Source: an uncultured Granulosicoccaceae bacterium
GTDB lineage: Bacteria; Pseudomonadota; Gammaproteobacteria; Granulosicoccales; Granulosicoccaceae
Reading direction: 5' to 3'
DNA length: 64,000 nt
Assembly (NCBI GenBank): GCA_937998875.1
Contig: CALLBO010000003.1
Span: 1 to 64,000, forward strand
The notes under the pieces were generated by a model that was given only the letters and a program-made list of their open reading frames with translations, was not told the origin of the DNA and searched no databases. This document shows, piece by piece, positions 20,219 to 35,512 of this stretch; the stretch's first letter is position 1; each line of letters begins with the position of its first letter. Made by a program: the position numbers and the translations under genes.

Positions 20219-20323
20219 AGTCTCGATGGTGCGCAGGTTTTACCTGTGCATTTTTGCTGTAACCGTTTCGCCAGACCCCGGGCGGGATGTAACAATTTAA
20301 CTGGTTTAAAGCGAGGAAAAACC

Positions 20324-21301
20324 ATGCGAAGATTCTTAAAGAAACTGGCCATTGCAACAGTGGCAGTGCCGTTAGTGTTAGGTTTTACTGCATCATTGGC
20401 ACATGCAGAAAAAATAAAGATTGCGCTTGCTGAAACGCCTTCAGATGAACTGGCTGCATTTTTTGTCGCGCTGGAGCGTGCAAAGGCCAACGGGCTCGAC
20501 TACGAGTGGACAGCGTTCTCCGATGAAGAGCTCGCTATTCAGGCGGTACTGAGTGGTCAAATGGATATTGGTTTTGGTACGCCGTACGCTGCCATGCAGA
20601 GATCAAAAGCTCCTATCAGAATCATCTTCCAACTTTCAAAACTGAAGTTCTTTCCGGTCACGACCAAAAAATATAGTTCTCTGGAAGATCTGAACGGCGA
20701 GCCGATTCTGCTTCACTCTCGTGGTGGCGGTACTGACTCGATTGCGAACGTTATTGAAGACAAGATGAATATCAAGTTCGGTGAACGATCTTATGTGCCG
20801 GGTTCATCGAACCGGGTTGTAGCGCTGGTAGCAGGGCAGGCCAACGCGACAATTATTGATCTCTCCAATAAGAACAAGGTGATGCGCCAGCATGCGGACA
20901 AGTTTAATGTGCTGCCAATGTTCGATGTTGAAGCAAGTGATGAAGCACTTTTTGCGAATCTTGACTGGATCAAGGAAAACTCTGAAGACGTGCAGATTTT
21001 CGTTGATGCGCTTGCTAGTACCTGGAAAGACATGAGTGAAGATCCATCGATAGTTGCCAAGGAAACAAACCCTGATGGACCGATTGGTCAGTTACCTCCG
21101 GAAATTCTGGGCAACCTTGATGAGTTTTATTCAGCCGCCGTTGAGGGTGGCTTGTACAGCCCGAATGGTGGCGGTATGACTGCGGCCAAAGCCGATCTCG
21201 AGTGGTATAGCGCTGCCGGTCAGCTCGAAGGTGACATCGATAGTCTGAATATTGATGACTTCTGGTATATGGATCCGCTTAACAAAGCAACCGGACAGTA
21301 G
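20324..21301 (+). CDS. NMT1/SsuA-type ABC transporter substrate-binding protein
   Basis: A periplasmic binding protein for a small organic ligand, of the SsuA/TauA/THI5 class. The signal peptide begins MRRFLKKLAIATVAVPLVLG and is probably cleaved after Ala28 (LAHA). The mature sequence has the class-typical pattern (IKIALAETPSDELAAFFVAL, IQAVLSGQMDIGFGTPYAA, LNGEPILLHSRGGGTDSI). The track start at 20246 is unlikely; GAGGA precedes the ATG at 20324. It is followed by a terminator-like hairpin and then permease, ATPase and second permease genes. Binding proteins of this class handle sulfonates, taurine, nitriles, thiamin precursors and similar molecules, so the ligand is open. Sulfatase genes downstream suggest a sulfur-containing compound. 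Confidence 0.9.
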   Translation: MRRFLKKLAIATVAVPLVLGFTASLAHAEKIKIALAETPSDELAAFFVALERAKANGLDYEWTAFSDEELAIQAVLSGQMDIGFGTPYAAMQRSKAPIRIIFQLSKLKFFPVTTKKYSSLEDLNGEPILLHSRGGGTDSIANVIEDKMNIKFGERSYVPGSSNRVVALVAGQANATIIDLSNKNKVMRQHADKFNVLPMFDVEASDEALFANLDWIKENSEDVQIFVDALASTWKDMSEDPSIVAKETNPDGPIGQLPPEILGNLDEFYSAAVEGGLYSPNGGGMTAAKADLEWYSAAGQLEGDIDSLNIDDFWYMDPLNKATGQ

Positions 21302-21311
21302 GTAAACCTGT

Positions 21312-21333
21312 GCACCCGCTCTTTTGCGGGTGC
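21312..21333 (+). terminator. Attenuating terminator after the binding-protein gene
   Basis: GCACCCGC, a 6-base loop, GCGGGTGC and then GCTTTTC form a compact intrinsic-terminator shape. It lies 10 bases after the binding-protein stop codon and inside the operon. Partial termination here would give more binding protein than membrane components, a common arrangement in importer operons. Confidence 0.7.
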
Positions 21334-21364
21334 GCTTTTCGGTGTCTGTAGAGGAATCGCATTC

Positions 21365-22126
21365 GTGCTAAGTCGTTCACTTACACTTAAATTGGTCTCT
21401 GCCATTGTTGTATTCGGCGCATGGGAGATTGCCGGACGCATACCGGTGAGCTATGCGTTTCCCACTTTCATTGATTCGATGAAGGCCTTGTATGCAATGA
21501 CTGTGGATGGAAGGTTGTTCGAGGCCTATGGGGAAACGCTTAAACCGTTGGTGATTGGTGTGTGTATCTCAGCGGTGTTGGGCATTATCATTGGGCTCTG
21601 GATTGGTCTGAGTAGTTGGTTTGACTGGCTATTCTCACCAATATTTATTGTGATGCAGGCGGCACCATTGGCAGCACTTATCCCGCTGCTGGTAATGATC
21701 TATGGCATAGGGCTCACCTCAAAGGTATTTGTGGTTTGCATTATGGCAATGCCGGTCATTGTTCTTAATACTTCAAGTGCTGTGCGCAACACCCCCTCAT
21801 CATTTATTGAGATGAGTAAGTCCTTTCTGGCATCACGCTGGGAAGTGCTTTTTAAAATCATTATTCCGGCAGCATCGCCTGTTATTTTCTCCGGGCTCCG
21901 GCTTGGTGTCTCAGCAGGTTTCATCGGTGCGATTCTTTCGGAACTTAAAATTACCCCGACCGGTGTCGGCGATATCATTACTTTCAGCCGTTCCATTGCA
22001 GACTACGCAAGTATGTATGCGGCGATATTTTCTATCATCGTACTTGCAGTCGTCTTTCTTAATTTACTAGAGACGCTTGAACGCGTTTTGTTCGAAGGAA
22101 ATGTACGTGGCTATGCTTCAGACTGA
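21365..22126 (+). CDS. SsuC-type ABC transporter permease (first of two)
   Basis: An inner-membrane permease with about six hydrophobic segments (for example LVSAIVVFGAWEIAG, PLVIGVCISAVLGIIIGLWI, IFSIIVLAVVFLNLLETLE). The cytoplasmic coupling loop reads SSFIEMSKSFLASRWEVLFK followed by IIIPAASPVIFSGLRLG, the EAA-type motif of this class. The start is a GTG with GAGGA upstream. Its 3' end overlaps the likely starts of the ATPase gene. A second, different permease gene lies after the ATPase, so the transporter is probably a permease heterodimer, less common in this class than the usual homodimer. Confidence 0.9.
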   Translation: MLSRSLTLKLVSAIVVFGAWEIAGRIPVSYAFPTFIDSMKALYAMTVDGRLFEAYGETLKPLVIGVCISAVLGIIIGLWIGLSSWFDWLFSPIFIVMQAAPLAALIPLLVMIYGIGLTSKVFVVCIMAMPVIVLNTSSAVRNTPSSFIEMSKSFLASRWEVLFKIIIPAASPVIFSGLRLGVSAGFIGAILSELKITPTGVGDIITFSRSIADYASMYAAIFSIIVLAVVFLNLLETLERVLFEGNVRGYASD

Positions 22127-22913
22127 TGCGTTGGCAGAAGAGCTTGCACCCCTGCAAACTGATAATGCGGTTTCAGTGAGTGGTGTGTCCAAGAATTATG
22201 GTGATGTAGAAGCGTTGAAAAATCTGTCGCTGGACTTTCCGCGCGGACAACTCACTTCATTGCTTGGTCCTTCGGGCTGTGGCAAGACGACACTACTCAA
22301 AATTATTGCAGGACTGCTTGATCCGACCGAGGGTGAAATTCTGGTAAACGGATCACCGGTTACCGGCCCTGGTGAAGACCGTGCCTTTGTGTTTCAGGAT
22401 TTTGCGTTATTACCCTGGGCGTCGGTACTAAGAAATGTTTCTTTCGGTCTTGAGTTGCGAGGTGTTGCCAAATCAGAACGCGAAGATATAGCCATTAAGT
22501 ACATCAAGGAAGTCGGGCTGGACGGATTTGAGAAAAGCTTTCCGCATGAATTATCCGGTGGCATGCGCCAGCGTGTAGGGCTTGCACGTGCATTGTCTGT
22601 TGATGCAGATGTGTTGCTTATGGATGAGCCGTTTTCAGCCGTCGATGAACAAACGAGACGCAAGTTCCAGGAAGATCTGCTGGCGCTTGTAGCGAATGAA
22701 AACAAAACCTTTATCTTTGTAACTCACTCAATTGAAGAAGCCGTATACGTTTCTGACCAGATAGCGATTCTTCTACCGCGACCGAGCCGTGTTGCAGACA
22801 TCATCCGCCCAACGGGTTTACGCGAGAAAGACACGGCAAGCATCCGAAGAGACCCTGAGTATCTCGATATTGTTGACGAGATCTGGGAATCCCTTAAGAC
22901 GTACGTGGAGTAG
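22113..22913 (+). CDS. SsuB/TauB-type ABC transporter ATPase
   Basis: The nucleotide-binding subunit of the importer. Walker A is GPSGCGKTT, the Q-loop is FVFQDFALLPW, the signature is LSGGMRQRVGLARAL and Walker B is VLLMDEPFSAVD, followed by the H-loop TFIFVTHSIEEA. Length and order are typical. Several starts are possible. The track gives TTG 22077, while AAGGAA at 22095-22100 fits GTG 22107 (6-base gap) or ATG 22113. I list 22113, but 22107 is equally plausible. All overlap the end of the upstream permease gene, indicating translational coupling. Confidence 0.92.
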   Translation: MLQTDALAEELAPLQTDNAVSVSGVSKNYGDVEALKNLSLDFPRGQLTSLLGPSGCGKTTLLKIIAGLLDPTEGEILVNGSPVTGPGEDRAFVFQDFALLPWASVLRNVSFGLELRGVAKSEREDIAIKYIKEVGLDGFEKSFPHELSGGMRQRVGLARALSVDADVLLMDEPFSAVDEQTRRKFQEDLLALVANENKTFIFVTHSIEEAVYVSDQIAILLPRPSRVADIIRPTGLREKDTASIRRDPEYLDIVDEIWESLKTYVE

Positions 22914-22916
22914 GGC

Positions 22917-23669
22917 ATGAAGGTATTTGGTGTTCGTCTACCTGGAATGTCTTCACTATTATTGTGGGGCCTCTTATGGGAAATCGTCGGTCGCTCAGGC
23001 TATTCCTTTTTTGTACCGCCGCTTTCCGAGGTGGTTACAACGCTTTTTGAAATCATTGGTACAGCAGCATTTCAAAAAGCCTTGTACGAAACGGCCTACG
23101 CATTTTGTTCCGGTGTGTTTTTCGCCATAGTCATTGGCATACCCACAGGTATCCTGATGGGAAAAAACAGACTCGTCGATGAGCTGTTGCTGCCGTGGGT
23201 TAATATTTTTCTCAGCGCTCCTCTAACTGCTTTGGTTCCTGTGCTGATGGTGCTGTTCGGCTTTGGCATGAAATCGATCATCATTACCACCACACTCTTT
23301 GCTATCTGGATCATTATCCTGAATGCACGTGCAGGTGTAATGCAGATCAACCGCTCTCTGGTCGAGATGGCCACCAGTTTTGGTGCCACACCCTGGTCTG
23401 CATTTTCCAAGATCTACTTCTGGGCGGCTCTCCCCGAAATACTCGGTGGTGTGCGGATCGGAATAATCAGAGCCGTGAAAGGGGTCATTATCGGTCAGCT
23501 GCTTATTTCACTGGTTGGGTTCGGAGCGTTGTTTGAACTTTACTCTAATAACTTTCTGATGAAGCACTTCTGGGCCGTTCTGGTGGTGTTGTTTGCACTG
23601 GCGTTTACCATTTCAGAGTTTCTGGCATACCTTGAAAGACGGGTATCCTATTATGCCGCCAAGCGGTAA
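22917..23669 (+). CDS. SsuC-type ABC transporter permease (second of two)
   Basis: A second inner-membrane permease with about six spans (YAFCSGVFFAIVIGIPTGIL, VNIFLSAPLTALVPVLMVLF, FWAVLVVLFALAFTISEFLA). The EAA loop region is SLVEMATSFGATPWSAFSKIYFWAALPEILGG. It begins three bases after the ATPase stop, so it is the same transcript. Sequence differs clearly from the first permease, arguing for a heterodimeric channel. The operon may continue into the sulfatase-like gene 86 bases further on. Confidence 0.9.
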   Translation: MKVFGVRLPGMSSLLLWGLLWEIVGRSGYSFFVPPLSEVVTTLFEIIGTAAFQKALYETAYAFCSGVFFAIVIGIPTGILMGKNRLVDELLLPWVNIFLSAPLTALVPVLMVLFGFGMKSIIITTTLFAIWIIILNARAGVMQINRSLVEMATSFGATPWSAFSKIYFWAALPEILGGVRIGIIRAVKGVIIGQLLISLVGFGALFELYSNNFLMKHFWAVLVVLFALAFTISEFLAYLERRVSYYAAKR

Positions 23670-23755: not shown

Positions 23756-25051
23756 GTGCCTGTCATCGAGCATCGCAACATCTTATTCTGCCTGTTCGAT
23801 TCCTTAAGCCTCGAAGAACTCGATGTGCTGGAGCGAGCAGGAAATCTGCCTTCACTGTCGTCTCTTAGAGCAGATGGCATGTTCTTCAGTCGTTGCTATA
23901 CACCGTGTCCGGAAAGTAGCCCTGCTCGCGCCAGTCTTTTTACCGGGCTTGATCCATCGGTTCATGGGCTATGGACTAACGGTGTCGCCCTTCCGGGTAA
24001 CGAACAAACATTCGCCAAACGACTGTCAAACTCAGGCTACGCAACTTATCTGGCGGGCCGCTATCAATTGGCCGGTGTCTCGCGATGGACGACAGAGCAG
24101 GTTAACGGCGGAGAGTTTGCTGAGATGGACTGGGCGCACGGTCCATTGCATCGTTCACGGCAAAACGCCTATTTGAACTGGCTTGAGAGAACAGCACCGG
24201 AACATCATGCAAAGGTCTTTACTACACAGGCCAATCCGCAAAACACAATTGTGTCCCAACAACAGAGGGCGGTTTATGAAGGTTTGCCGGACAAGTTAAG
24301 TTTTAATCATTGGGTGGGTGAACGGGTAGATGACTGGATTCGAAGCGCATCTCAAGATCAACCATTTCTATCGGTAGCAAGTTTCTCCACAGGAGATGGC
24401 CTGGGGGCAGAGCCGGCTGTAAATGCGGATGCAGAGGGCTTAAGTAAGATTGCGTTGCAACAGGCAGATGCTGCAATCGGTCAAATCATTGGGCAGTTGC
24501 AAGCAAGTAATCGTATGGATGACACGGTGATTATCGTCGCTTCTGCGCGGGGTAATCATGATCCGGATGTTGCTAACACCGTGATGGATGAGCGTTGTAT
24601 AAAAGTACCACTGCTGATTTATCAATCTGACGGTGAGAGCAAAGTGGTAGAGCTGCCAGTATCTACGATTGATATTGCGCCTACAGTGCTCGATTTGGCC
24701 AATGTGTCCGTTGGACCCCGTATGCAAGGTAGTTCGTTATTAAGTGCTTTCGGTAACGCTGATTCCTTCCGAAACTGGTCTATGACGCGTTTACGTGCGA
24801 CCAATACTAATGGTGAACGTGAGTGGTATACGTCGTTCTGTAACAACAGAATGAAGTTGGTGATACAGCATGATAAAAATGATTGCGAAGACACAACACG
24901 CTTGTACGATCTTGAAGCCGATCCTTGCGAACAGAATAATCTGGCATTGAACAATGCGCATATTGCTGTCCTTGAAGACATGATTGACCAGATGATAGAT
25001 GCGCGTTGTGCGTTGGAAGATCGCACTGAACCACGCATAGCGGACTTTTAG
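23756..25051 (+). CDS. Sulfatase-family protein, probably catalytically impaired
   Basis: Overall similarity to the next sulfatase is clear along the chain (opening RNILFCLFDS, SLFTGLDPSVHGLWTNGV, WAHGPLHRSRQNAYLNWLER, ending TRLYDLEADPCEQNNLALNN). Several catalytic sites differ. The active-site motif reads SSPAR, with Ser54 where formylglycine would form from Cys or Ser. The metal-binding DQQR of the N terminus is FDSLS. The usual FTSDHG is replaced by VASARG, and the FDPHHPF segment is missing. The protein is about 65 residues shorter than its neighbour. Ser-type sulfatases exist, but the loss of the Asp-His pair argues for a binding or regulatory pseudoenzyme. The start is a GTG without a clear ribosome-binding site. 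No signal peptide is seen. Confidence 0.85.
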   Translation: MPVIEHRNILFCLFDSLSLEELDVLERAGNLPSLSSLRADGMFFSRCYTPCPESSPARASLFTGLDPSVHGLWTNGVALPGNEQTFAKRLSNSGYATYLAGRYQLAGVSRWTTEQVNGGEFAEMDWAHGPLHRSRQNAYLNWLERTAPEHHAKVFTTQANPQNTIVSQQQRAVYEGLPDKLSFNHWVGERVDDWIRSASQDQPFLSVASFSTGDGLGAEPAVNADAEGLSKIALQQADAAIGQIIGQLQASNRMDDTVIIVASARGNHDPDVANTVMDERCIKVPLLIYQSDGESKVVELPVSTIDIAPTVLDLANVSVGPRMQGSSLLSAFGNADSFRNWSMTRLRATNTNGEREWYTSFCNNRMKLVIQHDKNDCEDTTRLYDLEADPCEQNNLALNNAHIAVLEDMIDQMIDARCALEDRTEPRIADF

Positions 25052-25052
25052 C

Positions 25053-26546
25053 GTGACCAAGAAATCTATAAAAAAGCGCCCGAATGTACTTTTTATTTGT
25101 ACCGATCAACAGCGTGGTGACAGTCTACATTGTACCGGTGCAACATGGGCGGTAACTCCTAACCTGGATAAACTGGCCGGTGACGGCGCGTTGTTTAAGA
25201 ATTGTTATGTGCAAAATCCGGTCTGCAGTCCTTCCCGAGCGAGTCTGTTTACCGGTAAGTATGTGGCCAGTCACGGACTCTATGCTAACGGTGTTCCTCT
25301 GCCGGAACATCAAAAAATGTTTACTCGTACGCTGGCAGATGCAGGTTATGACTGCGGCATGATTGGTAAGCAGCATCTGTCTCCCTGTGATAATTGGCAA
25401 ACGGAACCGCGCCGTGATGATGGCTACCGTTACTTTAAGTGGGCACATGGTCCTAATCATCGTGCAGTAGAAAATGATTATCATGCGTGGCTGCGCGCTA
25501 CACAGCCGGAAATTTATGCACAGATATTTCCAGAGGCAGGTGCGAATGAAAGTACCGCCTACGGTAATAAGGCTAAAATGGGTACACCGATAGATTCGGT
25601 GCCAAAGGAAGCCCATTACTCTCACTGGGTTGCAGATTGTGCGCTGGAGTTTATAAATCACCCGCGTGAAGAAGACGATAGTTTTTGTCTGGTCGCCAAT
25701 TTTTTTGATCCGCATCATCCTTTCGGCGCGCCGCAGGAATTCCGGGATCTGATTGATTCTGATGCGATACCTGATCCGAATACACGCGATGATGAACTGA
25801 GTAACAAGCCACCTGAGCAAACGTTTTATTCGGAGAAAAGTTATGCAGGTGTGGCGCCAGGCTTCAGGGATTACACACAAGAGCAGATTCGTGAAATCAG
25901 GGCACAGTATTGGGCCATGATTGCGCTTATCGATTATGAGGTTGGGCGTATATTAGATGCGTTGGCTAAAGCCGGTCTGGCTGAGGATACACTGGTGGTC
26001 TTTACCTCTGATCATGGTGAGATGCTGGGGAATCATCAACAGTTGTTAAAAGGGCCGCAACTCTATGATGATCTGACTCATGTTCCGCTGATTGCACGAT
26101 GGCCGCGAAAGGTCACAGCCGGGCAAGTCATTGATGAGTTGGTGCAGTGGGTAGATTTACCGGCGACTTTTCTTGATGTAGCGGGATGTACAAATAGCCT
26201 GGGAGTGCAAGGGGAAACACTGTTGCCTCTGATGACACAACAGGAAGCAAAGTGGCGTGACTGGGCGTTAAGCGAATACCGTGATTCGGGATTTACTACT
26301 GATCCCAAAATCATGACGACCATGCTCAGGCATGAAAACTGGAAGCTGATCATCTGGCACGGGGCGCCTGCAACAGGCGGGCAGCGTAATGGAGAGATGT
26401 ATGATCTATCCAAGGACCCTCACGAGCTCTTTAACCTGTTTCATGAGCCTGAATATGCAGAAACTCGTAGAAAATTAAAGATGAAGCTACTTAAGGTAAT
26501 GGCTGAAACAGAGGATCACACACAGCCACAGGTCCGTAGTTGGTAG
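25053..26546 (+). CDS. Cys-type sulfatase (type I), cytoplasmic
   Basis: A hydrolase of sulfate esters in the alkaline-phosphatase superfamily. It has the sulfatase signature CSPSRASLFTG (Cys58, to be converted to formylglycine), the N-terminal metal site VLFICTDQQRGDS, the substrate-side FDPHHPF, and the second metal site FTSDHGEMLGNH. Length, 497 residues, is typical. The GTG start follows the previous stop by one base, so the two genes are coupled. No signal peptide or membrane segment is present, so it should act in the cytoplasm on imported substrates. The formylglycine-generating enzyme needed to activate it is encoded at 34583. The substrate cannot be read from sequence, though the linked importers suggest a small sulfated sugar or organosulfate. 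Confidence 0.93.
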   Translation: MTKKSIKKRPNVLFICTDQQRGDSLHCTGATWAVTPNLDKLAGDGALFKNCYVQNPVCSPSRASLFTGKYVASHGLYANGVPLPEHQKMFTRTLADAGYDCGMIGKQHLSPCDNWQTEPRRDDGYRYFKWAHGPNHRAVENDYHAWLRATQPEIYAQIFPEAGANESTAYGNKAKMGTPIDSVPKEAHYSHWVADCALEFINHPREEDDSFCLVANFFDPHHPFGAPQEFRDLIDSDAIPDPNTRDDELSNKPPEQTFYSEKSYAGVAPGFRDYTQEQIREIRAQYWAMIALIDYEVGRILDALAKAGLAEDTLVVFTSDHGEMLGNHQQLLKGPQLYDDLTHVPLIARWPRKVTAGQVIDELVQWVDLPATFLDVAGCTNSLGVQGETLLPLMTQQEAKWRDWALSEYRDSGFTTDPKIMTTMLRHENWKLIIWHGAPATGGQRNGEMYDLSKDPHELFNLFHEPEYAETRRKLKMKLLKVMAETEDHTQPQVRSW

Positions 26547-27415: not shown

Positions 27416-27450
27416 TTCCATATATGGCATTGTCAATTCCATATATGGAA
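27416..27450. promoter_or_regulatory. Paired palindromic sites over the IclR gene start
   Basis: TTCCATATATGG (27416-27427) and TTCCATATATGGAA (27437-27450) are palindromic and spaced exactly 21 bases apart, two helical turns. Both lie on the start region of the IclR gene: the first contains the ATG at 27424 and the second the in-frame ATG at 27445. IclR proteins bind palindromes of this size as dimers or tetramers, so self-control at this site is likely. Confidence 0.65.
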
Positions 27451-28296
27451 TCTGTCGCTCTAAAATCAGACGCATCCCTGAGCCCGACGGCGCGCACCCT
27501 GCAGGTGTTGGAATACATTATGGCGGCAGGGCCGGGGCCCATTAAGCAAGTAGATATCGCCCGTGATTGTGGCCTGTCTCCTTCAACTCTCAATCGAATT
27601 ATCAAGACGCTTTCTGACTGGGGTTACCTTTTCCGTACCAGTGAGAAGTATTGTGTGCGGAACTTCCGGATGGAGCGCAACGTCCCGATGTCGGAGACCT
27701 ATCTCGCTAAACTTGATGACACCATGCGTGCTTTGTCGGAAGAGTTAGGCACGTCTGCAGAGGTGGTTGTTGTCGCCGGGCATGAGCTGCTCTGGCATTC
27801 TAAAACAGAGCACCCGAACCCTCAGGTTCTGATTCGTGCAAATGTTGGCTTTAGACGTTCGTTGTACGAGCTGGATGCACTATCGCAGCTTTATCTGAGT
27901 CGTCTTGACTGGAAAGACCTTGAGTCGCGGTTTTATACTGACGGGTTCTTTGCCACAGCACGTGATGGTGATCAGCAAACGCGCAGGTTAACTGCGAGCT
28001 CGGTAAAAAAGCAGTTGATGTCGGTGCAGCAGCAGACATTTGCGGCTGATCTGGAAGGCAATCATATGGGTATTCGTAGATTTGCTACGGTAGTTGAAGA
28101 CCCCGATGGTAAGTTCCTGCACCTGCTAACCCTGGCTGAGCCGGTAGGTGATCTGAGTAACGAAAAAGCCCATGTGAAGCGCTATCGCGATGCGCTGCTC
28201 GAAGCACGTGATGGCTTAACCGAGCTCGTCTATACCGAAAATCCCGCGTACAGACCGCGGCCGAAACATCATGTTATGCCACAACGGGGCGGTTAG
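27424..28296 (+). CDS. IclR-family transcriptional regulator
   Basis: The N-terminal winged helix (residues about 20-75) reads PTARTLQVLEYIMAAGPGPI, then QVDIARDCGLSPSTLNRIIK. The C-terminal effector domain follows (ETYLAKLDDTMRALSEELGT, SAEVVVVAGHELLWHS, VGFRRSLYELDALSQLYLS). Length, 290 residues, is slightly longer than average. The first ATG at 27424 and an ATG at 27445 both fall in palindromic operator-like sequence. The second would give the more usual short N-terminal lead. It heads the importer-sulfatase operon, whose first gene starts 39 bases after its stop with a strong ribosome-binding site. It is probably the local regulator of sugar uptake, with the effector unknown. Confidence 0.92.
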   Translation: MALSIPYMESVALKSDASLSPTARTLQVLEYIMAAGPGPIKQVDIARDCGLSPSTLNRIIKTLSDWGYLFRTSEKYCVRNFRMERNVPMSETYLAKLDDTMRALSEELGTSAEVVVVAGHELLWHSKTEHPNPQVLIRANVGFRRSLYELDALSQLYLSRLDWKDLESRFYTDGFFATARDGDQQTRRLTASSVKKQLMSVQQQTFAADLEGNHMGIRRFATVVEDPDGKFLHLLTLAEPVGDLSNEKAHVKRYRDALLEARDGLTELVYTENPAYRPRPKHHVMPQRGG

Positions 28297-28334: not shown

Positions 28335-29609
28335 ATGAAAAGATTACTCACAACGCTACTGTCTGCATCACTGTTTGCGGGTGTAGCAGCTACTACCACA
28401 GTACATGCGCAGGACGAAATCAATGTCGTCATGTTTGGCATGCCTTACACCAAAGGTCTTCAAGCCATTGCCGGTGATTTTGAAAAAGAAACTGGTATAA
28501 AGGCCAATATTGATGTGATCGGTCAGGACGTTTTTGAAAACCGTATAACCCTTTCGTTTACCGGCAATACCGGTGACATTGATGTAGTACATACACCGGT
28601 TATTCAGGTGCAGCGCTGGGTTGCAGCAGACTGGTTAAAGCCTATCACTGCAGAAGTTGATGCCATGGCTGTGAAGTCAGACATCATGGCGGGTCCGCTG
28701 GATGCCTATAAGATCAATGGTGAACAGTGGGCGGTACCTTATATGGCGGCGACCGGTCTGATGACTTATCGCAAAGATATTCTCGAAGCCGCGGGTGTTG
28801 AAGTACCACAAACTTGGGAAGAAATGCTTGCAGTTGCCGCGAAAGTTCACTCCGATGAGACTGCAGCAATTGCCATGCGTGCGGTACCGGGGCAGGGTTT
28901 TAACATGTTTATCTTCCCGATGGTGATGCGTGCCTATGGGGGTAAATTCTTTGAAGACTACACCGCAGGTGACCTGACACCGGCTATCAATTCACCGGAA
29001 ACACTGGAGGCGCTGAATGTCTATATGAAGCTGCTTAACGAGTACGGACCACAAGGCGCTGGCAATTTTAACTTTGCGGAAGTTCAGGCGGCAGCGCAAA
29101 ATGGTCAGATTACTTTTGCAGTCGAGGGTACTGGAATAGCGGCTTCATTAGTTGACCCTGATAAAAGTAAGTTTGCAGATAAGACCGGCATCACCTTGCC
29201 ACCTGGTGGACCGGCTGGACGATCTCCGGCTATTGCAGTACATGGGCTGGGTATTCCAGCATCAGCGAAGAATCCGGAGCTATCTGCAAAGTTTATTGAG
29301 TGGGCCGTAAGCGCCGAAACTATGACCAAGATTGCGCTGGCTCAGCCGTTTTCGAACTTTACTACCCAGTCAGTTGCACAGAACGAAGAGGTTATCGCCA
29401 AGTACTCAAAAGTGCATCCTGATTTTCTGGCGGTACAGGCTGAAGCACTTAATCTTGCGGTCGGTCATTACCGTCCGTTGCTGCCGGAATGGCCAGCGCT
29501 TGGACAGGCGATAGGTGAGAATATCAACGGTGCACTCAACGGTTTGATGTCGCCGGAAGAAGCACTGGAAGCCGCAGAGCAGGAGATGAGAGATATTCTC
29601 GGGCTCTAG
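28335..29609 (+). CDS. ABC sugar transporter substrate-binding protein
   Basis: A periplasmic family-1 solute-binding protein (MalE/UgpB class). The signal peptide (MKRLLTTLLSASLFAGVAAT, cleavage likely after Ala25 in VHAQD) is followed by the class pattern: INVVMFGMPYTKGLQAIAGD, DIDVVHTPVIQVQRW, WAVPYMAATGLMTYRKD, a hinge near TWEEMLAVAAK, and AVHGLGIPASAKNPE near the C terminus. Length is typical. GGAGGAAGGAT gives an excellent ribosome-binding site. It is followed by a terminator-like hairpin, permeases, a sulfatase and the ATPase. A sulfated sugar or oligosaccharide is the inferred ligand because of the co-transcribed sulfatase. Confidence 0.92.
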   Translation: MKRLLTTLLSASLFAGVAATTTVHAQDEINVVMFGMPYTKGLQAIAGDFEKETGIKANIDVIGQDVFENRITLSFTGNTGDIDVVHTPVIQVQRWVAADWLKPITAEVDAMAVKSDIMAGPLDAYKINGEQWAVPYMAATGLMTYRKDILEAAGVEVPQTWEEMLAVAAKVHSDETAAIAMRAVPGQGFNMFIFPMVMRAYGGKFFEDYTAGDLTPAINSPETLEALNVYMKLLNEYGPQGAGNFNFAEVQAAAQNGQITFAVEGTGIAASLVDPDKSKFADKTGITLPPGGPAGRSPAIAVHGLGIPASAKNPELSAKFIEWAVSAETMTKIALAQPFSNFTTQSVAQNEEVIAKYSKVHPDFLAVQAEALNLAVGHYRPLLPEWPALGQAIGENINGALNGLMSPEEALEAAEQEMRDILGL

Positions 29610-29631
29610 AGCAACGCAAGTAGTTACTTAC

Positions 29632-29665
29632 AAAGCGCCCGGTTGTGTAAGCTGCCGGGCGCTTT
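29632..29665 (+). terminator. Attenuating terminator after the sugar-binding-protein gene
   Basis: AAAGCGCCCGG and CCGGGCGCTTT form an 11-base stem with a 12-base loop, with T-rich sequence at the right end (GCTTTCATT). It lies 22 bases after the binding-protein stop and before the permease start, favouring excess binding protein over permease. Confidence 0.75.
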
Positions 29666-29699
29666 CATTGGCATCTGTCCAATCGAAGCTTTCACATAA

Positions 29700-30590
29700 A
29701 TGACATCAAAACCACAACCTCGTGCAACCGCGGAGCTTGAGCGCGGTTATCGAAACATGCTGCTTCCAGCTGTTTTTGCAGTGGGGATATTCGCAATTGT
29801 ACCACTCGCTGGAATGCTGGCGCTTTCATTTAGTGACTATCACCTGATACGCGGTACCAATTGGGATTTCGGTTTCAAGAACTTTGTCCGTCTGGTATCA
29901 GACAAGCGTTTAATGGGGTCTGTCTATGCGATGTCTGTTCTGTCTTTCTTTGGGGTATTAACACAGGTTCTCATTGGTGCAGCCATCGCGGTTGGGTTGA
30001 GCAAGATTGTTGGTAAATGGCGACTGGGACGAGTGCTGTTTCTATTACCATATGCTGTACCTCATGTAGCAGTGGCGCTTATCTGGTTGTCTTTGTTTAC
30101 ACCAACCCTTTCACCAATAAATGCGTTTTTCGATTTATTCGGTATAACGGTGCCATCTTTTCTGACCACGCAAAATGGTGCCTTGTTTGCCATTGTTATG
30201 GCTGATACCTGGACCAATTTCCCGTTCGCTATGTTGATTATACTCGCGGCATTGCAGGGTATCTCTCCAGACCTTGATGAGGCTGCCGCGCTTGATGGAG
30301 CTACCCGCGTTCAATCCTTTTTTTATGTGACTTTGCCGCTGCTGATACCGGCCTTTTTGATGGTCACACTGTTTCGATTTATTGATTCGCTAAAGCACTT
30401 CCCGATGATCTTTGTTATGACCAAGGGTGGGCCAGGCAGATCAACGCAGGCAACTAATTATTACGCCTATATACAGACATTTCAGAATTCCAATGTCGCC
30501 TACGGTGCTGCCATCGCGGTGACACTATTTATTGTGGCAGCTATTATCAGTTTCTATGTGGCCAGGCTTAATCAGCGGATAACATCGTGA
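29700..30590 (+). CDS. MalF/UgpA-type ABC sugar transporter permease
   Basis: An inner-membrane permease with about six spans (LLPAVFAVGIFAIVPLAGML, VLIGAAIAVGLSKIVGKW, AIAVTLFIVAAIISFYV). The cytoplasmic coupling loop is EAAALDGATRVQSFFYVTLP, followed by LLIPAFLMVT. FVMTKGGPGRSTQATNYYAY is typical of the MalF/UgpA subgroup. The stop codon overlaps the GTG start of the next permease gene by four bases (GTGA), so the two are coupled. Confidence 0.93.
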   Translation: MTSKPQPRATAELERGYRNMLLPAVFAVGIFAIVPLAGMLALSFSDYHLIRGTNWDFGFKNFVRLVSDKRLMGSVYAMSVLSFFGVLTQVLIGAAIAVGLSKIVGKWRLGRVLFLLPYAVPHVAVALIWLSLFTPTLSPINAFFDLFGITVPSFLTTQNGALFAIVMADTWTNFPFAMLIILAALQGISPDLDEAAALDGATRVQSFFYVTLPLLIPAFLMVTLFRFIDSLKHFPMIFVMTKGGPGRSTQATNYYAYIQTFQNSNVAYGAAIAVTLFIVAAIISFYVARLNQRITS

Positions 30591-31417
30591 TTGATAACAC
30601 GTCCTCATTTCGCGTTAAAAAGGCATTCGGTGTAACCATAATGCTGGTGCTGCTGTTCTTCGCTGCATTGCCCACTGTGTGGGTGCTGATCATGTCATTT
30701 CGCGAACAAGCGGAAATTTTTGAGCCGATCTGGGAGAGCCCGTTGGCAGTAACGCTTGATAACTACCGGGGCATTGCACGTTCGGATTTTCCAAAAGCAT
30801 TGTTGAACAGTTTTATCTGTGCAGGCAGTTCAACATTACTCGCGATGATAGTCGGAGTGCCAGCGGGTTTTGCACTGGCCAAGTCGCGCTTGTCTGGAAA
30901 GTTTTATGCGTCCTGGTTGTTGCTGTTGTTACGCATGGCACCTCCGGTAGGATTTGTGATACCGCTTTTTCTGCTCTACGTGAATGCTGGTTTGATTGAT
31001 ACGTACTTCGGCCTGATCGTCGCGTATATGACGCTGACACTGCCGTTGATTGTCTGGTCTATGTGGAATTCATTTGCGCAGGTACCAGATGAATTGATCG
31101 AGGCTGCCATCATGGACGGTGCAACTCTTGGCAAGGCTTTTCTGCAGGTTGCACTTCCCGCTGCACGACCCGGTGCAGTAGCCGCTGCCATATTGGGTTT
31201 TCTTATCGTCTGGAATGACTTCTTCTATGCGTTGATTATCACCCGATCATCCACCGTTACTGCTCCTGTGGCGGTAATGAATTTTATTTCCTACGACAGT
31301 GTTGACTGGGGTTCCATTGCTGTTGCAAGTATTGCACTCACCTTACCTATTTTGCCCCTGATGGTAATCGCGAATCGCTATATTGTTCAGTCACTATCGG
31401 GTGCGGTTAAAGGATAA
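30587..31417 (+). CDS. MalG/UgpE-type ABC sugar transporter permease
   Basis: The partner inner-membrane permease, with about six spans (VTIMLVLLFFAALPTVWVLI, LLAMIVGVPAGFALAKSRL, MTLTLPLIVWSMWNSF). The coupling loop reads ELIEAAIMDGATLGKAFLQV, followed by ALPAARPGAVA. The start is GTG, overlapping the previous stop. The sulfatase start is four bases after its end, a tight operon. With the MalF-type neighbour it forms a heterodimeric channel. Confidence 0.93.
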   Translation: MIDNTSSFRVKKAFGVTIMLVLLFFAALPTVWVLIMSFREQAEIFEPIWESPLAVTLDNYRGIARSDFPKALLNSFICAGSSTLLAMIVGVPAGFALAKSRLSGKFYASWLLLLLRMAPPVGFVIPLFLLYVNAGLIDTYFGLIVAYMTLTLPLIVWSMWNSFAQVPDELIEAAIMDGATLGKAFLQVALPAARPGAVAAAILGFLIVWNDFFYALIITRSSTVTAPVAVMNFISYDSVDWGSIAVASIALTLPILPLMVIANRYIVQSLSGAVKG

Positions 31418-31420
31418 AGA

Positions 31421-32914
31421 ATGTCAGATCGACCGAATATTGTTTTTATACTCACCGATCAGCAACGGTATGACACCATCGCAGCGATGGGGTTTGATCA
31501 TATGATCACTCCAAATCTTGATCGACTGGCGCGTCAGGGTACTGCTTTTGAAAACATGTATATCACAGCGCCTTCCTGTGCGCCGTCTCGTGCTTCGTTG
31601 TTCAGTGGGGTCTATCCACACACCAATGGTGTGTTCCGCAACGATGAGCCGTGGAATTACTGTTGGGTAAAAGACCTTGCAGAGGGTGGTTATCGCACCG
31701 TAAATGTTGGCAAGATGCATACTATGCCGGTAGAGGGTCCGTTCGGTTTTCATGAGCGGCACGTCGTGGAAAACAAGGATCGTGATCATCCCAATCTGCC
31801 GTTCTATCTCGATAACTGGGATAAAGCCTATTTTTTACGCGGTCTACGTAAGCCATCACGGGTATCGCAACGTGAGCGTGATGATTACGATGAACTGCTT
31901 GGTGCATGGGTGTGGGAGCACGATGAGATTATGCACCCCGATGTTTTTGTTGGTCAGATGGCGTGTTGGTGGATAGACCGTTATCCGGGGGAAGATCCTT
32001 TCTTTCTGCAAGTCGGCTTACCGGGACCACACCCGCCTTACGATCCAACAGAACAATACCTTGAGATGTATACAGGCCGTGAGATGCCGGCGCCTATACC
32101 ACCGGACCCTGAATCTCAGCCTGAAGCCATGCAGGAGTTGCGTAAGTTTCATTTGGGTGAAGATGCTGATGGCGTTGTGCATCTTGCAGACCCAACACCT
32201 GAACAGTCACAACGGCAGAGAGCGCATTACTACGCCAACGTCACCATGATCGATAAACAGGTTGGCGATATTCTGGACACGCTTGAAAAGCGTGGCGCTC
32301 TTGATAACACCATCATCATCTTCACTTCGGACCATGGTGATTGCCTTGGTGATCACGGTCATTCACAAAAGTGGAATATGTATGAACCCACTGTTCATGT
32401 ACCAGCGTTGATTTCGTGGCCCGGTCATATACCTGAAGGGCAGCGGGTGAGTGATCTGGTGGCGTTGTTTGATCTGGGGCCGACAATACTTGAATACGCC
32501 GGTATTGAACCACCAGAGTGGATGGAGGCAACCTCGCTGCAACCGTATTTAGGTGGTAAACAGCAGGCAGAGCGGCAACGGGTTTATGCAGAGCACTCTA
32601 ACGATGCGCTACTTACCGGTACGCGCTTTATGACTATGATTCGTGATGGTGCAATAAAACTGGTGCATTTTGTCGATTCTGAAAATGGTCAGTTGTTTGA
32701 TCTCGATAATGATCCGGATGAGCAGGTTAACTTATGGCACGATCCGGCATATGCTGAAAAACGTGCTTACCTGATCAATGAAATTCTTAACTGGCGACTG
32801 GAGAGTAGTCTGCACACGCAGGGATTTATAGAAGCCTGTATACGGGGTGAGCAGGCGATGATGTCACCGCCGTGTACACCCGCACGAGGCCAGCATCGTG
32901 AAGGAAGCAGATAG
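31421..32914 (+). CDS. Cys-type sulfatase embedded in the sugar importer operon
   Basis: A sulfate ester hydrolase with the signature [11 protein letters not shown] (Cys53), first metal site [12 protein letters not shown], and second metal site [18 protein letters not shown]. The [12 protein letters not shown] segment occupies the substrate-side region of the family. Length, 497 residues, is normal and the ribosome-binding site AAGGA is close. No signal peptide is present, so it is cytoplasmic. It differs substantially from the sulfatase at 25053, so the two probably have different substrates. The position between the permeases and the ATPase of a sugar importer strongly suggests that the imported compound carries a sulfate that this enzyme removes after uptake. 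That link is inferred. Confidence 0.94.
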
Positions 32915-32916
32915 CA

Positions 32917-33921
32917 ATGGCGAGGATTGAGCTTAAAAATGTTGAGAAGGCATTCGGTAAAGTAGAAGTCATCAAGCCGTTGAATCTTGAGATAGAAGAC
33001 GGTGAATTTGTGGTTTTTGTCGGCCCGTCAGGATGTGGAAAATCCACACTTCTCAGGCTCATTGCCGGGCTGGAAGATACCACTGCCGGTACCATTGAGA
33101 TAGATGGCAGAGATTCAACCAGCATGCCACCGGGTAAGCGTGGTCTAGCTATGGTGTTTCAAAGCTATGCGCTGTACCCGCATATGACTGTGCGAAAAAA
33201 CATCGCCTTCCCTATGCGAATGGCGAAGATACCCCGCGCCGAGCAAAAACAACGAATAGAATCCGCAGCGCAAGTACTCAACTTAACCGATTATCTGGAT
33301 AGAAGACCCGGTCAACTTTCCGGTGGGCAGCGCCAACGCGTTGCCATTGGTCGTGCGATTGTACGTGAGCCCTCAGCTTTCCTGTTTGATGAACCGCTTT
33401 CAAATCTTGATGCTGCATTGCGGGTCGGGATGCGCATGGAGATCACTGAACTACACAAACGGCTTGAAACAACGATGGTCTATGTTACGCATGATCAGGT
33501 TGAAGCGATGACCATGGCAGACAAAATTGTCGTTCTTCATGATGGTGTTATAGAGCAGGTGGGCAGTCCGCTGGAGCTTTACAACAGGCCGGTGAATTTG
33601 TTTGTGGCCGGGTTTATTGGTTCACCGAAAATGAATATTATCGATGGTGGGCAAGCACCGGGAATTGATGCGTACAAAATCGGCATCAGGCCCGAGCATA
33701 TTAATATCTCAACCGAGAGCGGATTATGGGAGGCAACGGTTGGTGTCGCAGAGCATCTTGGAAGCGATACTTTCTTTCATGCCAGAGTTGATGGGATGTC
33801 TGATCCGATAACAGTCCGAACGGACGGTAGTATGCAGGTTAACCGCGGTAGTACTATTTATCTGTCACCGGACGAACAGAAAATCCATCGCTTTGACGCT
33901 CAGGGTATACGCATTGATTGA
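32917..33921 (+). CDS. MsmK/UgpC-type ABC sugar transporter ATPase
   Basis: The nucleotide-binding subunit. Walker A is GPSGCGKST, the Q-loop is [12 protein letters not shown], the signature is [15 protein letters not shown], Walker B is [12 protein letters not shown] and the switch His is in [13 protein letters not shown]. The C-terminal TOBE region follows ([29 protein letters not shown]). It starts three bases after the sulfatase stop and completes the importer begun at 28335. A DUF6940-like gene and the sulfatase-activating enzyme come next, likely on the same transcript. Confidence 0.95.
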
Positions 33922-33959: not shown

Positions 33960-34586
33960 TTGGACTTTGAAATTGTTGTCGAGGAAGTGCAGCCAGAGGT
34001 GCTTCGATACCAGCTCTATGCGTTGGATCAACCTGTTACTTTCGGGCAATTTATCAACGCCCTTGCTAGTGACAAGGCAAGTGATGCGGAGTTTCGGCAG
34101 CAATTCAATTCACTACTCGCTGAAGCGCCGTTTGAAGCGTATCGCATTGAGACGCCTGCATTATCGTTACTGTCTCTTGATGATTCATTCGAGTTCGTAT
34201 TGATTAACGCGCCGGCGTTGTTGCATCGTACAACAGATGCGATAACGTTCGCACAGTATTTTGAACAATCCGAAGCCGATGTAGTCGTGTTTAAGAGTCT
34301 CGGTGGCGATGCAATTCTGATAGCGCCAGTATCGTTAGGAAGTTATGAATATTGTAATCATCTTGCAGTCTTTGTTCGCAGTGCTCCTGAGTCTCAGGTT
34401 CAGTCGCTTTGGCAAATGGTGGGGCAGGTGCTGATGCGGGACGTCTGCACTGAACCGCGTTGGTTTAGCACTGAAGGCAGTGGTGTGGCGTGGTTGCATG
34501 TTCGCATTGACTCTCGACCAAAGTACTACGGTTATAAAAAATATGCAGTTGTGCGTGGTGGGTGTAATCCAGAGGCCCTGAGATGA
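33960..34586 (+). CDS. DUF6940-like protein of unknown function
   Basis: A soluble protein of about 208 residues with a TTG start. Distinctive phrases are FEFVLINAPAL, VVVFKSLGGDAILIAPV and AWLHVRIDSRPKYYGYKKY, which I associate from memory with the DUF6940 family. No catalytic motif can be named, though several Tyr and Arg residues near the C terminus (RPKYYGY) look conserved in style. Its last four bases overlap the start of the formylglycine-generating enzyme gene (ATGA), so the two are translationally coupled. Context suggests a helper in sulfatase maturation or in the sugar pathway, but nothing in the sequence proves it. Confidence 0.6.
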   Translation: MDFEIVVEEVQPEVLRYQLYALDQPVTFGQFINALASDKASDAEFRQQFNSLLAEAPFEAYRIETPALSLLSLDDSFEFVLINAPALLHRTTDAITFAQYFEQSEADVVVFKSLGGDAILIAPVSLGSYEYCNHLAVFVRSAPESQVQSLWQMVGQVLMRDVCTEPRWFSTEGSGVAWLHVRIDSRPKYYGYKKYAVVRGGCNPEALR

Positions 34587-35512
34587 CCTGCTGTCCGCCG
34601 TCGTCATCGCCATCGGAAGAGTCTTTCACGCCAACGGTTTTCACACCGTCGGAGGCTGCAGTTCGGCCTGCGTCTGTCATGATTCCTGGTGGCACCGGGT
34701 TTATTGGTACAGACAAACCTTACATTCGGTTTGATGGGGAAGGTCCGTTAAGGAAAGGTCAGGTGGGCGCGTTCACTATGTCTCAAGGTTCTATAAGTAA
34801 TGCGGATTTTGCAGCGTTTGTGGCGGATACCGGTTATATAACAGAGGCGGAGCACTATGGCTGGTCATTCGTGTTCTGGAATCAGGTACCGGATTACGTC
34901 GGTGATACCCAAGCGGTACCTGGAGCTACGTGGTGGCGTCGGGTAGATGGAGCATCATGGCGATACATTACCGGGCCTCGCTGTGCATTGATTAATGATC
35001 TGCAGGATCATCCAGTGGTTCATATTTCGTGGAATGATGCTATGGCTTATTGCTCTTGGGCGGGGGGGCGGTTACCGACGGAACTTGAGTGGGAGCATGC
35101 AGCTCGCGGTGGTCTAACGGACGCACGCTTTCCGTGGGGTGACGCAGAGCCGGACGACGAAAAGAACATTTTTTGTAATATCTGGCAAGGACGTTTTCCT
35201 CAGAACAACACCTTGAAAGATGGTTACCAGGCCACCGCCCCGGCTTTGTCATTCGAGCCGAATGGATATGGCTTGTACAATATGGTTGGTAATGTGTGGG
35301 ACTGGACTGCAGAGACACATCGGGTTCCGGGTCGTCGTAGTGCATCGGGTTCTGATCATTTGCAGGCAGCCAGCCCTAACAAGGTTGCTAAGGGTGGATC
35401 GTTCCTGTGCCACAAAAGCTATTGCTACCGATACCGTATTGCAGCGCGAATCGGCAATGCACCGGACAGCACAACCACTCATATGGGCTTCAGGGTGGTG
35501 TGGGATCGCTAG
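34583..35512 (+). CDS. Formylglycine-generating enzyme (sulfatase activator)
   Basis: A copper-dependent oxidase that converts the active-site Cys of type I sulfatases into formylglycine. The SUMF1/FGE fold is clear (FTMSQGSISNADFAAFVADT, HPVVHISWNDAMAYCSWAGG, RLPTELEWEHAARGG, NGYGLYNMVGNVWDWT). The catalytic Cys pair is in GGSFLCHKSYCYRYR (Cys276 and Cys281), as in true FGEs and unlike related SUMF1-domain proteins. Length is 309 residues. There is no signal peptide, so maturation occurs in the cytoplasm. The N terminus starts MTCCPPSSSPS, which partly mimics the C-x-P-S-R substrate motif. It should serve both Cys-type sulfatases in the window (25053 and 31421). Confidence 0.93.
   Translation: MTCCPPSSSPSEESFTPTVFTPSEAAVRPASVMIPGGTGFIGTDKPYIRFDGEGPLRKGQVGAFTMSQGSISNADFAAFVADTGYITEAEHYGWSFVFWNQVPDYVGDTQAVPGATWWRRVDGASWRYITGPRCALINDLQDHPVVHISWNDAMAYCSWAGGRLPTELEWEHAARGGLTDARFPWGDAEPDDEKNIFCNIWQGRFPQNNTLKDGYQATAPALSFEPNGYGLYNMVGNVWDWTAETHRVPGRRSASGSDHLQAASPNKVAKGGSFLCHKSYCYRYRIAARIGNAPDSTTTHMGFRVVWDR

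What the first reader, a model, noticed from the sequence alone, without database searches (positions are those of the whole stretch)
23756..25051. Sulfatase pseudoenzyme paired with a normal sulfatase
The fold is kept but the formylglycine Cys is Ser in SSPAR, the DQ metal site is lost, DHG has become ARG and the FDPHHPF segment is missing. It is co-encoded with an intact paralogue one base downstream. It may be a structural partner, substrate-capturing subunit, or regulator of the active sulfatase, a role not generally described for sulfatases.
Basis: partly seen in the sequence, partly recalled or inferred. Interest (0 to 1): 0.65.

Follow-up and report, generated by a model that had tools for sequence, protein, structure and literature searches.

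The report
Dead sulfatase paired with live one
A bacterial gene for a sulfate-removing enzyme has lost its chemistry but has been kept, always directly in front of a working sister gene, in many unrelated marine bacteria, which suggests that the dead protein is a needed helper subunit of the live enzyme, an arrangement I found no description of for this enzyme family.

Summary
The 431-residue product of 23756-25051 has the sulfatase fold, but three of four metal ligands, the formylglycine residue, the GKxH lysine and the FDPHH segment are gone. SSPAR alone would fit a Ser-type sulfatase, but orthologues have Ser, Ala or Gly there, so that reading fails. One correction: the Asp of DQ is kept; only the Gln is lost.

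The pair is not strain-specific. I found 15 loci in 14 genomes of Granulosicoccaceae and Rhodobacterales. In all of them the degenerate gene lies directly 5' of an active-type partner, in a sugar-ABC/sulfatase operon. Two genomes with only scars of the degenerate gene have no partner. The degenerate lineage is monophyletic, evolves fast, and still looks constrained.

Its C-terminal 26 residues are the best-conserved part relative to the partner (84% versus 49% body identity), the reverse of the partner (60% versus 75%). In choline sulfatase this tail reaches into the neighbouring subunit's active-site entrance. Best explanation: a pseudo-sulfatase subunit of a hetero-oligomer that completes the partner's active site in trans. 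Hetero-oligomerisation is inferred; a tethered AlphaFold2 model was inconclusive. I found no described precedent among sulfatases in the papers searched.

The parts
23756..25051 (+). Degenerate sulfatase (pseudo-sulfatase), 431 aa, no signal peptide apparent
25053..26546 (+). Active-type S1 sulfatase partner, 497 aa, all catalytic residues present (D18 Q19 C58 R62 K106 H108 H221/H222 D320 H321 K333)
   Evidence: residues invariant in the partner orthologues
23915..23929 (+). SSPAR (aa 54-58): formylglycine Cys replaced; S/A/G in orthologues; Arg58 invariant
24056..24067 (+). GRYQ (aa 101-104): GKxH with Lys replaced by invariant Arg102
24131..24184 (+). WAHGPLHRSRQNAYLNWL (aa 126-143): subfamily motif, 92% mean identity in pseudo, 96% in partner
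24383..24469 (+). Site of the deletion that removes FDPHHPF and following residues (aa about 210-238)
24545..24553 (+). ARG (aa 264-266): metal-binding DHG replaced; Arg265 invariant in all orthologues
24971..25048 (+). C-terminal tail (aa 406-431, ...MIDARCALEDRTEPRIADF): most conserved part relative to partner
27424..28296 (+). IclR-type regulator, conserved neighbour
28335..31417 (+). Sugar ABC importer: binding protein and two permeases, conserved neighbours
31421..32914 (+). Second, distant active-type sulfatase of the operon
32917..33921 (+). UgpC-type ABC ATPase, conserved neighbour
34583..35512 (+). Formylglycine-generating enzyme-type protein (PF03781)
   Evidence: FGE relatives also at L032, L055, L057, L062
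20246..23669 (+). NMT1/SsuA-type ABC importer directly upstream; shared only with the nearest relative L017

Best explanation
The gene makes a pseudo-sulfatase that is an obligate non-catalytic subunit of a hetero-oligomer (dimer or dimer of dimers) with the active sulfatase encoded next to it. Its own active site is dead: no formylglycine can form, three of four metal ligands are lost, and the former metal position probably holds an Asp15-Arg265 salt bridge. Its job is done mainly by its C-terminal tail, which crosses to the live subunit and builds or gates its active-site entrance, as the swapped tail does in homotetrameric choline sulfatase. The live subunit's own tail reaches only the dead site and has been free to drift. 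Shown: loss of catalytic residues, universal pairing, parallel divergence, apparent co-loss, tail conservation inversion. Inferred: physical complex, tail in trans, salt bridge, effect on activity or specificity.
For: (1) Pairing: 15 of 15 loci with the degenerate gene have the partner directly 3', spaced from overlap to 14 nt, in two operon arrangements and two proteobacterial classes. (2) Genomes with only truncated remnants of the degenerate gene (L036, L037) have no partner anywhere. (3) Distance matrices of pseudo and partner correlate (r 0.79, Mantel p 0.0001, 11 loci). (4) Constraint: for window versus L017, pN 0.22 versus pS 0.70, dN/dS about 0.13 with dS near saturation. (5) Tail: aa 406-431 have 84% mean identity in pseudo versus 49% in its body; the partner shows 60% versus 75%. 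Only 26-aa windows starting at 392-406 (14 of 406) have pseudo more conserved than partner. 14 of 26 tail columns are invariant in pseudo but variable in partner, against 9 of 405 elsewhere (Fisher p 9e-14). (6) Tail Arg427 is invariant in pseudo, R in 3 of 4 unpaired relatives, Q in 10 of 12 partners. (7) In S. meliloti choline sulfatase the C-terminal tail mediates tetramerisation, three tunnel residues come from another protomer's tail, and removing 12 residues cuts kcat/KM for choline sulfate 2.5x10^3-fold (PMC5870055). The closest folds of the model include that enzyme and dimeric SpAS1/SpAS2. (8) In the lone-chain model, conserved segments 54-79, 105-120 and 423-431 have pLDDT below 50, as interface segments might.
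Against: No direct evidence of a complex. The tethered-pair AlphaFold2 model has pTM 0.49 and no confident packing, though with two paired rows and a three-residue linker it is uninformative. Low pLDDT may reflect the shallow alignment. Sulfatase relatives at 56-60% identity occur without a pseudo partner, so the fold does not need one. Sequence similarity of this tail to that of choline sulfatase was not shown; only position and role are compared. The Fisher test treats columns as independent.
Confidence: 0.5

Rival explanations
1. A ligand sensor: the dead pocket, with invariant Arg58, Arg102 and Arg265, still binds a sulfated sugar or free sulfate without metal and regulates the partner, the importer or the regulator.
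For: Three positively charged residues of the old pocket are invariant in pseudo proteins although metal ligands are lost; Arg265 replaces a metal ligand in every orthologue.
Against: Arg265 may simply neutralise Asp15. The conservation maximum relative to partner lies in the tail, not the pocket.
Confidence: 0.17
2. A cryptic enzyme with a different, metal-free or rebuilt active site.
For: A conserved fold with family-specific invariant residues such as D66 and R345; constraint.
Against: The nucleophile position varies as S/A/G; metal ligands are A/G and R; no conserved new His/Asp cluster seen; strict pairing with a live sulfatase is not expected of an independent enzyme.
Confidence: 0.1
3. 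A maturation helper or decoy: it keeps the PARAS context around the formylglycine position and assists or competes for the formylglycine-generating enzyme on the partner.
For: P-A-R-A-S context kept in the orthologues that cover it; FGE genes sit in or near the operon in several loci.
Against: Those residues are also structural; unpaired relatives with their own FGE manage without; does not explain tail conservation.
Confidence: 0.1
4. A decaying duplicate retained by chance or hitch-hiking.
For: Branch lengths several times those of partner; truncated remnants in two genomes.
Against: Long reading frame kept in 14 genomes of two classes, dN/dS well below 1, and 84% conserved tail. Remnant genomes also lack the partner, so there the whole pair was lost.
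Confidence: 0.03

Closest known systems
Choline sulfatase BetC/SmCS of Sinorhizobium meliloti (PDB 6FNY; PMC5870055)
   Same: Same superfamily and fold; close structural match of the model; C-terminal tail crosses to the neighbouring protomer and forms its active-site entrance
   Different: Homotetramer of active subunits; no pseudo-subunit; different tail length and sequence
Dimeric arylsulfatases SpAS1/SpAS2 of Silicibacter (Ruegeria) pomeroyi (4UPI, 4UPL)
   Same: Top Foldseek hits of the pseudo-sulfatase; dimers with C-terminal extensions
   Different: Active homodimers
Prozyme with AdoMetDC, and the deoxyhypusine synthase pair of trypanosomes (PMC5201418, PMC3663545)
   Same: Dead paralogue paired with a live one; hetero-oligomer that activates
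   Different: Unrelated enzymes, eukaryotic; activation by an N-terminal switch in AdoMetDC; physical evidence exists there
PbgA/YejM/LapC, sulfatase-like protein of the same superfamily (PMC7018646)
   Same: Sulfatase-like domain in a protein studied for a non-sulfatase role
   Different: Membrane-anchored, not paired with a live paralogue; only weak profile match (NCBIfam 36 bits against cut-off 825)
L061a of genome G954 (degenerate copy in an Opp-type operon)
   Same: Loses C58 (S), K106 (R), D18, H221/222 and K333; shares an operon with an intact relative; groups with the pseudo clade
   Different: Keeps DHG and full length; less diverged

Membership tests
S1 formylglycine sulfatases (active enzyme) | Alkaline-phosphatase-superfamily sulfatase fold | tested here: met
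   Pfam PF00884 3e-26; Foldseek E 4e-21 to sulfatases
S1 formylglycine sulfatases (active enzyme) | C/S-x-P-x-R with convertible Cys or Ser | tested here: not met
   S in the window, but S/A/G across orthologues
S1 formylglycine sulfatases (active enzyme) | Four metal ligands (D, D/Q, D, H/N) | tested here: not met
   D15 kept; Q to S/A, D to A/G, H to R
S1 formylglycine sulfatases (active enzyme) | Catalytic Lys/His of GKxH, His of FDPHH, second Lys | tested here: not met
   K to R always; His-containing segment deleted; K333 lost
S1 formylglycine sulfatases (partner, 25053-26546) | All catalytic residues present and conserved | tested here: met
   Invariant in the partner orthologues
Pseudoenzyme-enzyme hetero-oligomers (prozyme-like) | Catalytically dead paralogue by sequence | tested here: met
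Pseudoenzyme-enzyme hetero-oligomers (prozyme-like) | Conserved genetic association with live paralogue | tested here: met
Pseudoenzyme-enzyme hetero-oligomers (prozyme-like) | Physical complex | tested here: inconclusive
   Tethered AlphaFold2 model pTM 0.49 with two paired rows
Pseudoenzyme-enzyme hetero-oligomers (prozyme-like) | Change of the live enzyme's activity by the dead one | not testable with these tools
   Needs biochemistry
Choline sulfatase (TIGR03417) | Score above the curated cut-off | tested here: not met
   Pseudo 110.6 and partner 207.2 bits against cut-off 433

The most novel reading that the evidence does not exclude
An obligate hetero-oligomeric sulfatase in which one subunit has lost all chemistry and survives to lend its C-terminal tail to the other subunit's active site, so that the two tails of an ancestral symmetric enzyme were specialised: one kept under selection in the dead chain, one released in the live chain.
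Probability: 0.38. Interest if true: 0.75.

Novelty: new variant of a known kind. Interest (0 to 1): 0.62.

Why it matters
Sulfatases are usually described as monomers or homo-oligomers of identical active chains. A conserved dead subunit would mean that expressing the annotated active gene alone can miss activity or true substrate specificity, and that annotation pipelines wrongly count the dead gene as a sulfatase. It is also a clean natural case of a symmetric enzyme splitting into a catalytic and a tail-donating chain, with a less degraded relative (L061a) and unpaired relatives for comparison.

Tried and rejected
Ser-type sulfatase (AtsB-modified): rejected, A/G at the position in orthologues. 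Recent tandem duplication of the partner: the AU test rejects pseudo plus partner as one clade (p 0.009); the pseudo lineage groups instead with L061a (95/98; 83/93 with catalytic columns masked, so not secure). Sequencing error or pseudogene: rejected by intact frames in many assemblies and constraint. Heterodimer by AlphaFold2: a first alignment (A4) put pseudo rows on the partner half and was not used; the second (A5) gave pTM 0.49, uninformative. Plasmid search found no hit above 60% identity. Literature: 'pseudosulfatase' has no paper; searches for heterodimeric, inactive or degenerate sulfatase found only four papers, none that from title and abstract describes such a pair; only open-licence papers are held. 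A second survey with L061a in 395 genomes found no further degenerate copy of its kind.

Full report
WHAT IS THERE. The window encodes on the + strand a 431-residue degenerate sulfatase (23756-25051) and, after one base, a 497-residue active-type sulfatase (25053-26546). Both start with GTG and have no obvious signal peptide (own reading). The degenerate protein matches Pfam Sulfatase and SGSH_C; its AlphaFold2 model (pLDDT 78, pTM 0.85) matches sulfatases at E down to 4e-21, the dimeric SpAS1 and the choline sulfatase of S. meliloti first.

WHAT IS LOST. Against the partner: D18 kept (D15), Q19 to S, C58 to S, R62 kept (R58), K106 to R102, H108 to Q, FDPHHPF deleted, D320 to A, H321 to R265, K333 lost. 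In orthologues the nucleophile position is S, A or G, so it is not a Ser-type sulfatase; K to R and H to R are universal; D15 and R58 are invariant. My inference is that D15 and R265 pair where the metal used to sit.

HOW WIDESPREAD. Orthologues occur in 5 of 48 genomes of the family, the window's own included, and in one further gammaproteobacterial genome of 369. A scan of 84,980 species' genomes found 14 loci with much of the gene (L022-L035), in Granulosicoccaceae and Rhodobacterales, including cultured Marinovum algicola FF3 (L031) and Tateyamaria pelophila DSM 17270 (L032), and two truncated ones (L036, L037). After removal of duplicates there are 15 loci in 14 genomes, window included. 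In all 15 the degenerate gene lies directly 5' of the partner orthologue, in an operon with an IclR regulator, a sugar ABC importer, a second distant sulfatase and a UgpC-type ATPase, where the contig is long enough to show it. Two arrangements exist (pair at the front, or behind the second sulfatase and UgpC), so the pair holds together when the operon is rearranged. Spacing runs from overlaps to 14 nt; some starts are uncertain. A few loci are cut by contig ends, and L029 has a split partner.

PAIR AS A UNIT. In genomes with only remnants of the degenerate gene, no partner is found. Partner orthologues above 65% identity without the degenerate gene were not found, apart from one contig that starts inside the partner (G003). 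Relatives of the partner at 56-60% identity occur without a degenerate gene in other operons, Opp-type in L055, L056 and L061, with a formylglycine-generating enzyme gene beside them in L055 and L062 and probably L056 (by eye). I call these unpaired relatives. Pseudo and partner distances correlate (r 0.79, Mantel p 0.0001), as expected of genes that travel together; this alone does not prove contact.

PHYLOGENY. The degenerate proteins form one clade (100/100), the partners another (95/99). One unpaired-type operon (G954, L061) also holds a second, milder degenerate copy, L061a (D18S, C58S, K106R, HH to QG, K333N, but DHG kept). It groups with the degenerate clade, 95/98 in one tree and 83/93 with catalytic columns masked, and may be an earlier stage of the same lineage. 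Pseudo plus partner as a single clade is rejected (p-AU 0.009), with the caution that the pseudo stem is long.

SELECTION. For the closest pair of genomes the degenerate gene has pN 0.22 and pS 0.70 (dN/dS about 0.13, dS close to saturation), and dN about four times the partner's. It is constrained but fast.

THE TAIL. Mean identity over 11 paired loci: degenerate protein body 49%, last 26 residues 84%; partner body 75%, tail 60%. The same genomes are compared for both proteins, so shared history is controlled. Only windows at the C terminus have the degenerate protein more conserved than the partner; 14 of 26 tail columns are invariant in it but variable in the partner, against 9 of 405 elsewhere. 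Arg427 is invariant in the degenerate protein, present in three of four unpaired relatives, and Gln in 10 of 12 partners. At eight positions, including W73, S134, Q136 and R427, unpaired relatives agree with the dead protein and not with the live one; at 18, catalytic ones included, they agree with the live one. In choline sulfatase the tail drives tetramerisation, reaches the active-site entrance of another protomer, contributes three tunnel residues including Arg507, and is needed for activity; tails of choline sulfatases, phosphonate hydrolases and dimeric arylsulfatases are less conserved than the whole proteins (57 versus 62, 39 versus 50, 27 versus 51%) (PMC5870055). The partner follows that rule; the degenerate protein inverts it.

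MECHANISM. I take the protein to be a non-catalytic subunit of a hetero-oligomer with the partner, its tail serving the partner's active site while the partner's tail, now facing a dead site, drifts. Shown: sequence loss, pairing, constraint, tail inversion. Inferred: complex, tail position, effect on activity. A tethered-pair AlphaFold2 model (L017 pair joined through its in-frame stop) had pTM 0.49 and cannot decide.

SUBSTRATE. The operon imports a sugar; further along are a weak L-fucose mutarotase match (82 bits, cut-off 141), a weak L-fuconolactonase match, a FAH-family protein, a ribokinase (above cut-off) and a deoxyribose-phosphate aldolase (above cut-off). A cytoplasmic sulfated deoxysugar such as fucose sulfate from algae is a guess only.

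NOVELTY. Dead-live paralogue pairs are known elsewhere (prozyme, PMC5201418; deoxyhypusine synthase, PMC3663545; review PMC10211241, in which the word sulfatase does not occur). I found no description of one for sulfatases in the held open-licence papers.

Noticed in passing
L061 6509-8044 (genome G954): Second, milder degenerate sulfatase sharing an Opp-type operon with an intact relative; possible earlier stage of the pseudo lineage.
   Followed up: partly
L036 7905-8879; L037 7980-8498: Truncated remnants of the pseudo-sulfatase; in L036 its N-terminal part is followed in one frame by part of a formylglycine-generating enzyme, as if the operon between them was deleted. Neither genome has a partner.
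   Followed up: yes
L029 9236-11859: Partner gene interrupted (about 1.1 kb between two parts) in one of two near-identical operon copies of the same MAG; L030 holds an intact copy.
   Followed up: no
window 15509-17083 and 50599-52599; also L019 10839-11696: Predicted proteins with repeated Cys-containing GWGW motifs (e.g. CIDTDGDGWGWDGTQSC); meaning unknown.
   Followed up: no
window 2339-3766, 3869-5317, 13767-15218: Three related transposase-like ORFs of about 480 aa.
   Followed up: no
window 20246-23669: NMT1/SsuA-type ABC importer directly upstream of the pair, present only in the nearest relative (L017) and not in the other loci that extend far enough.
   Followed up: partly
window 33960-34586: DUF6940 protein between UgpC and the formylglycine-generating enzyme, overlapping the latter's start; also in L017.
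   Followed up: no
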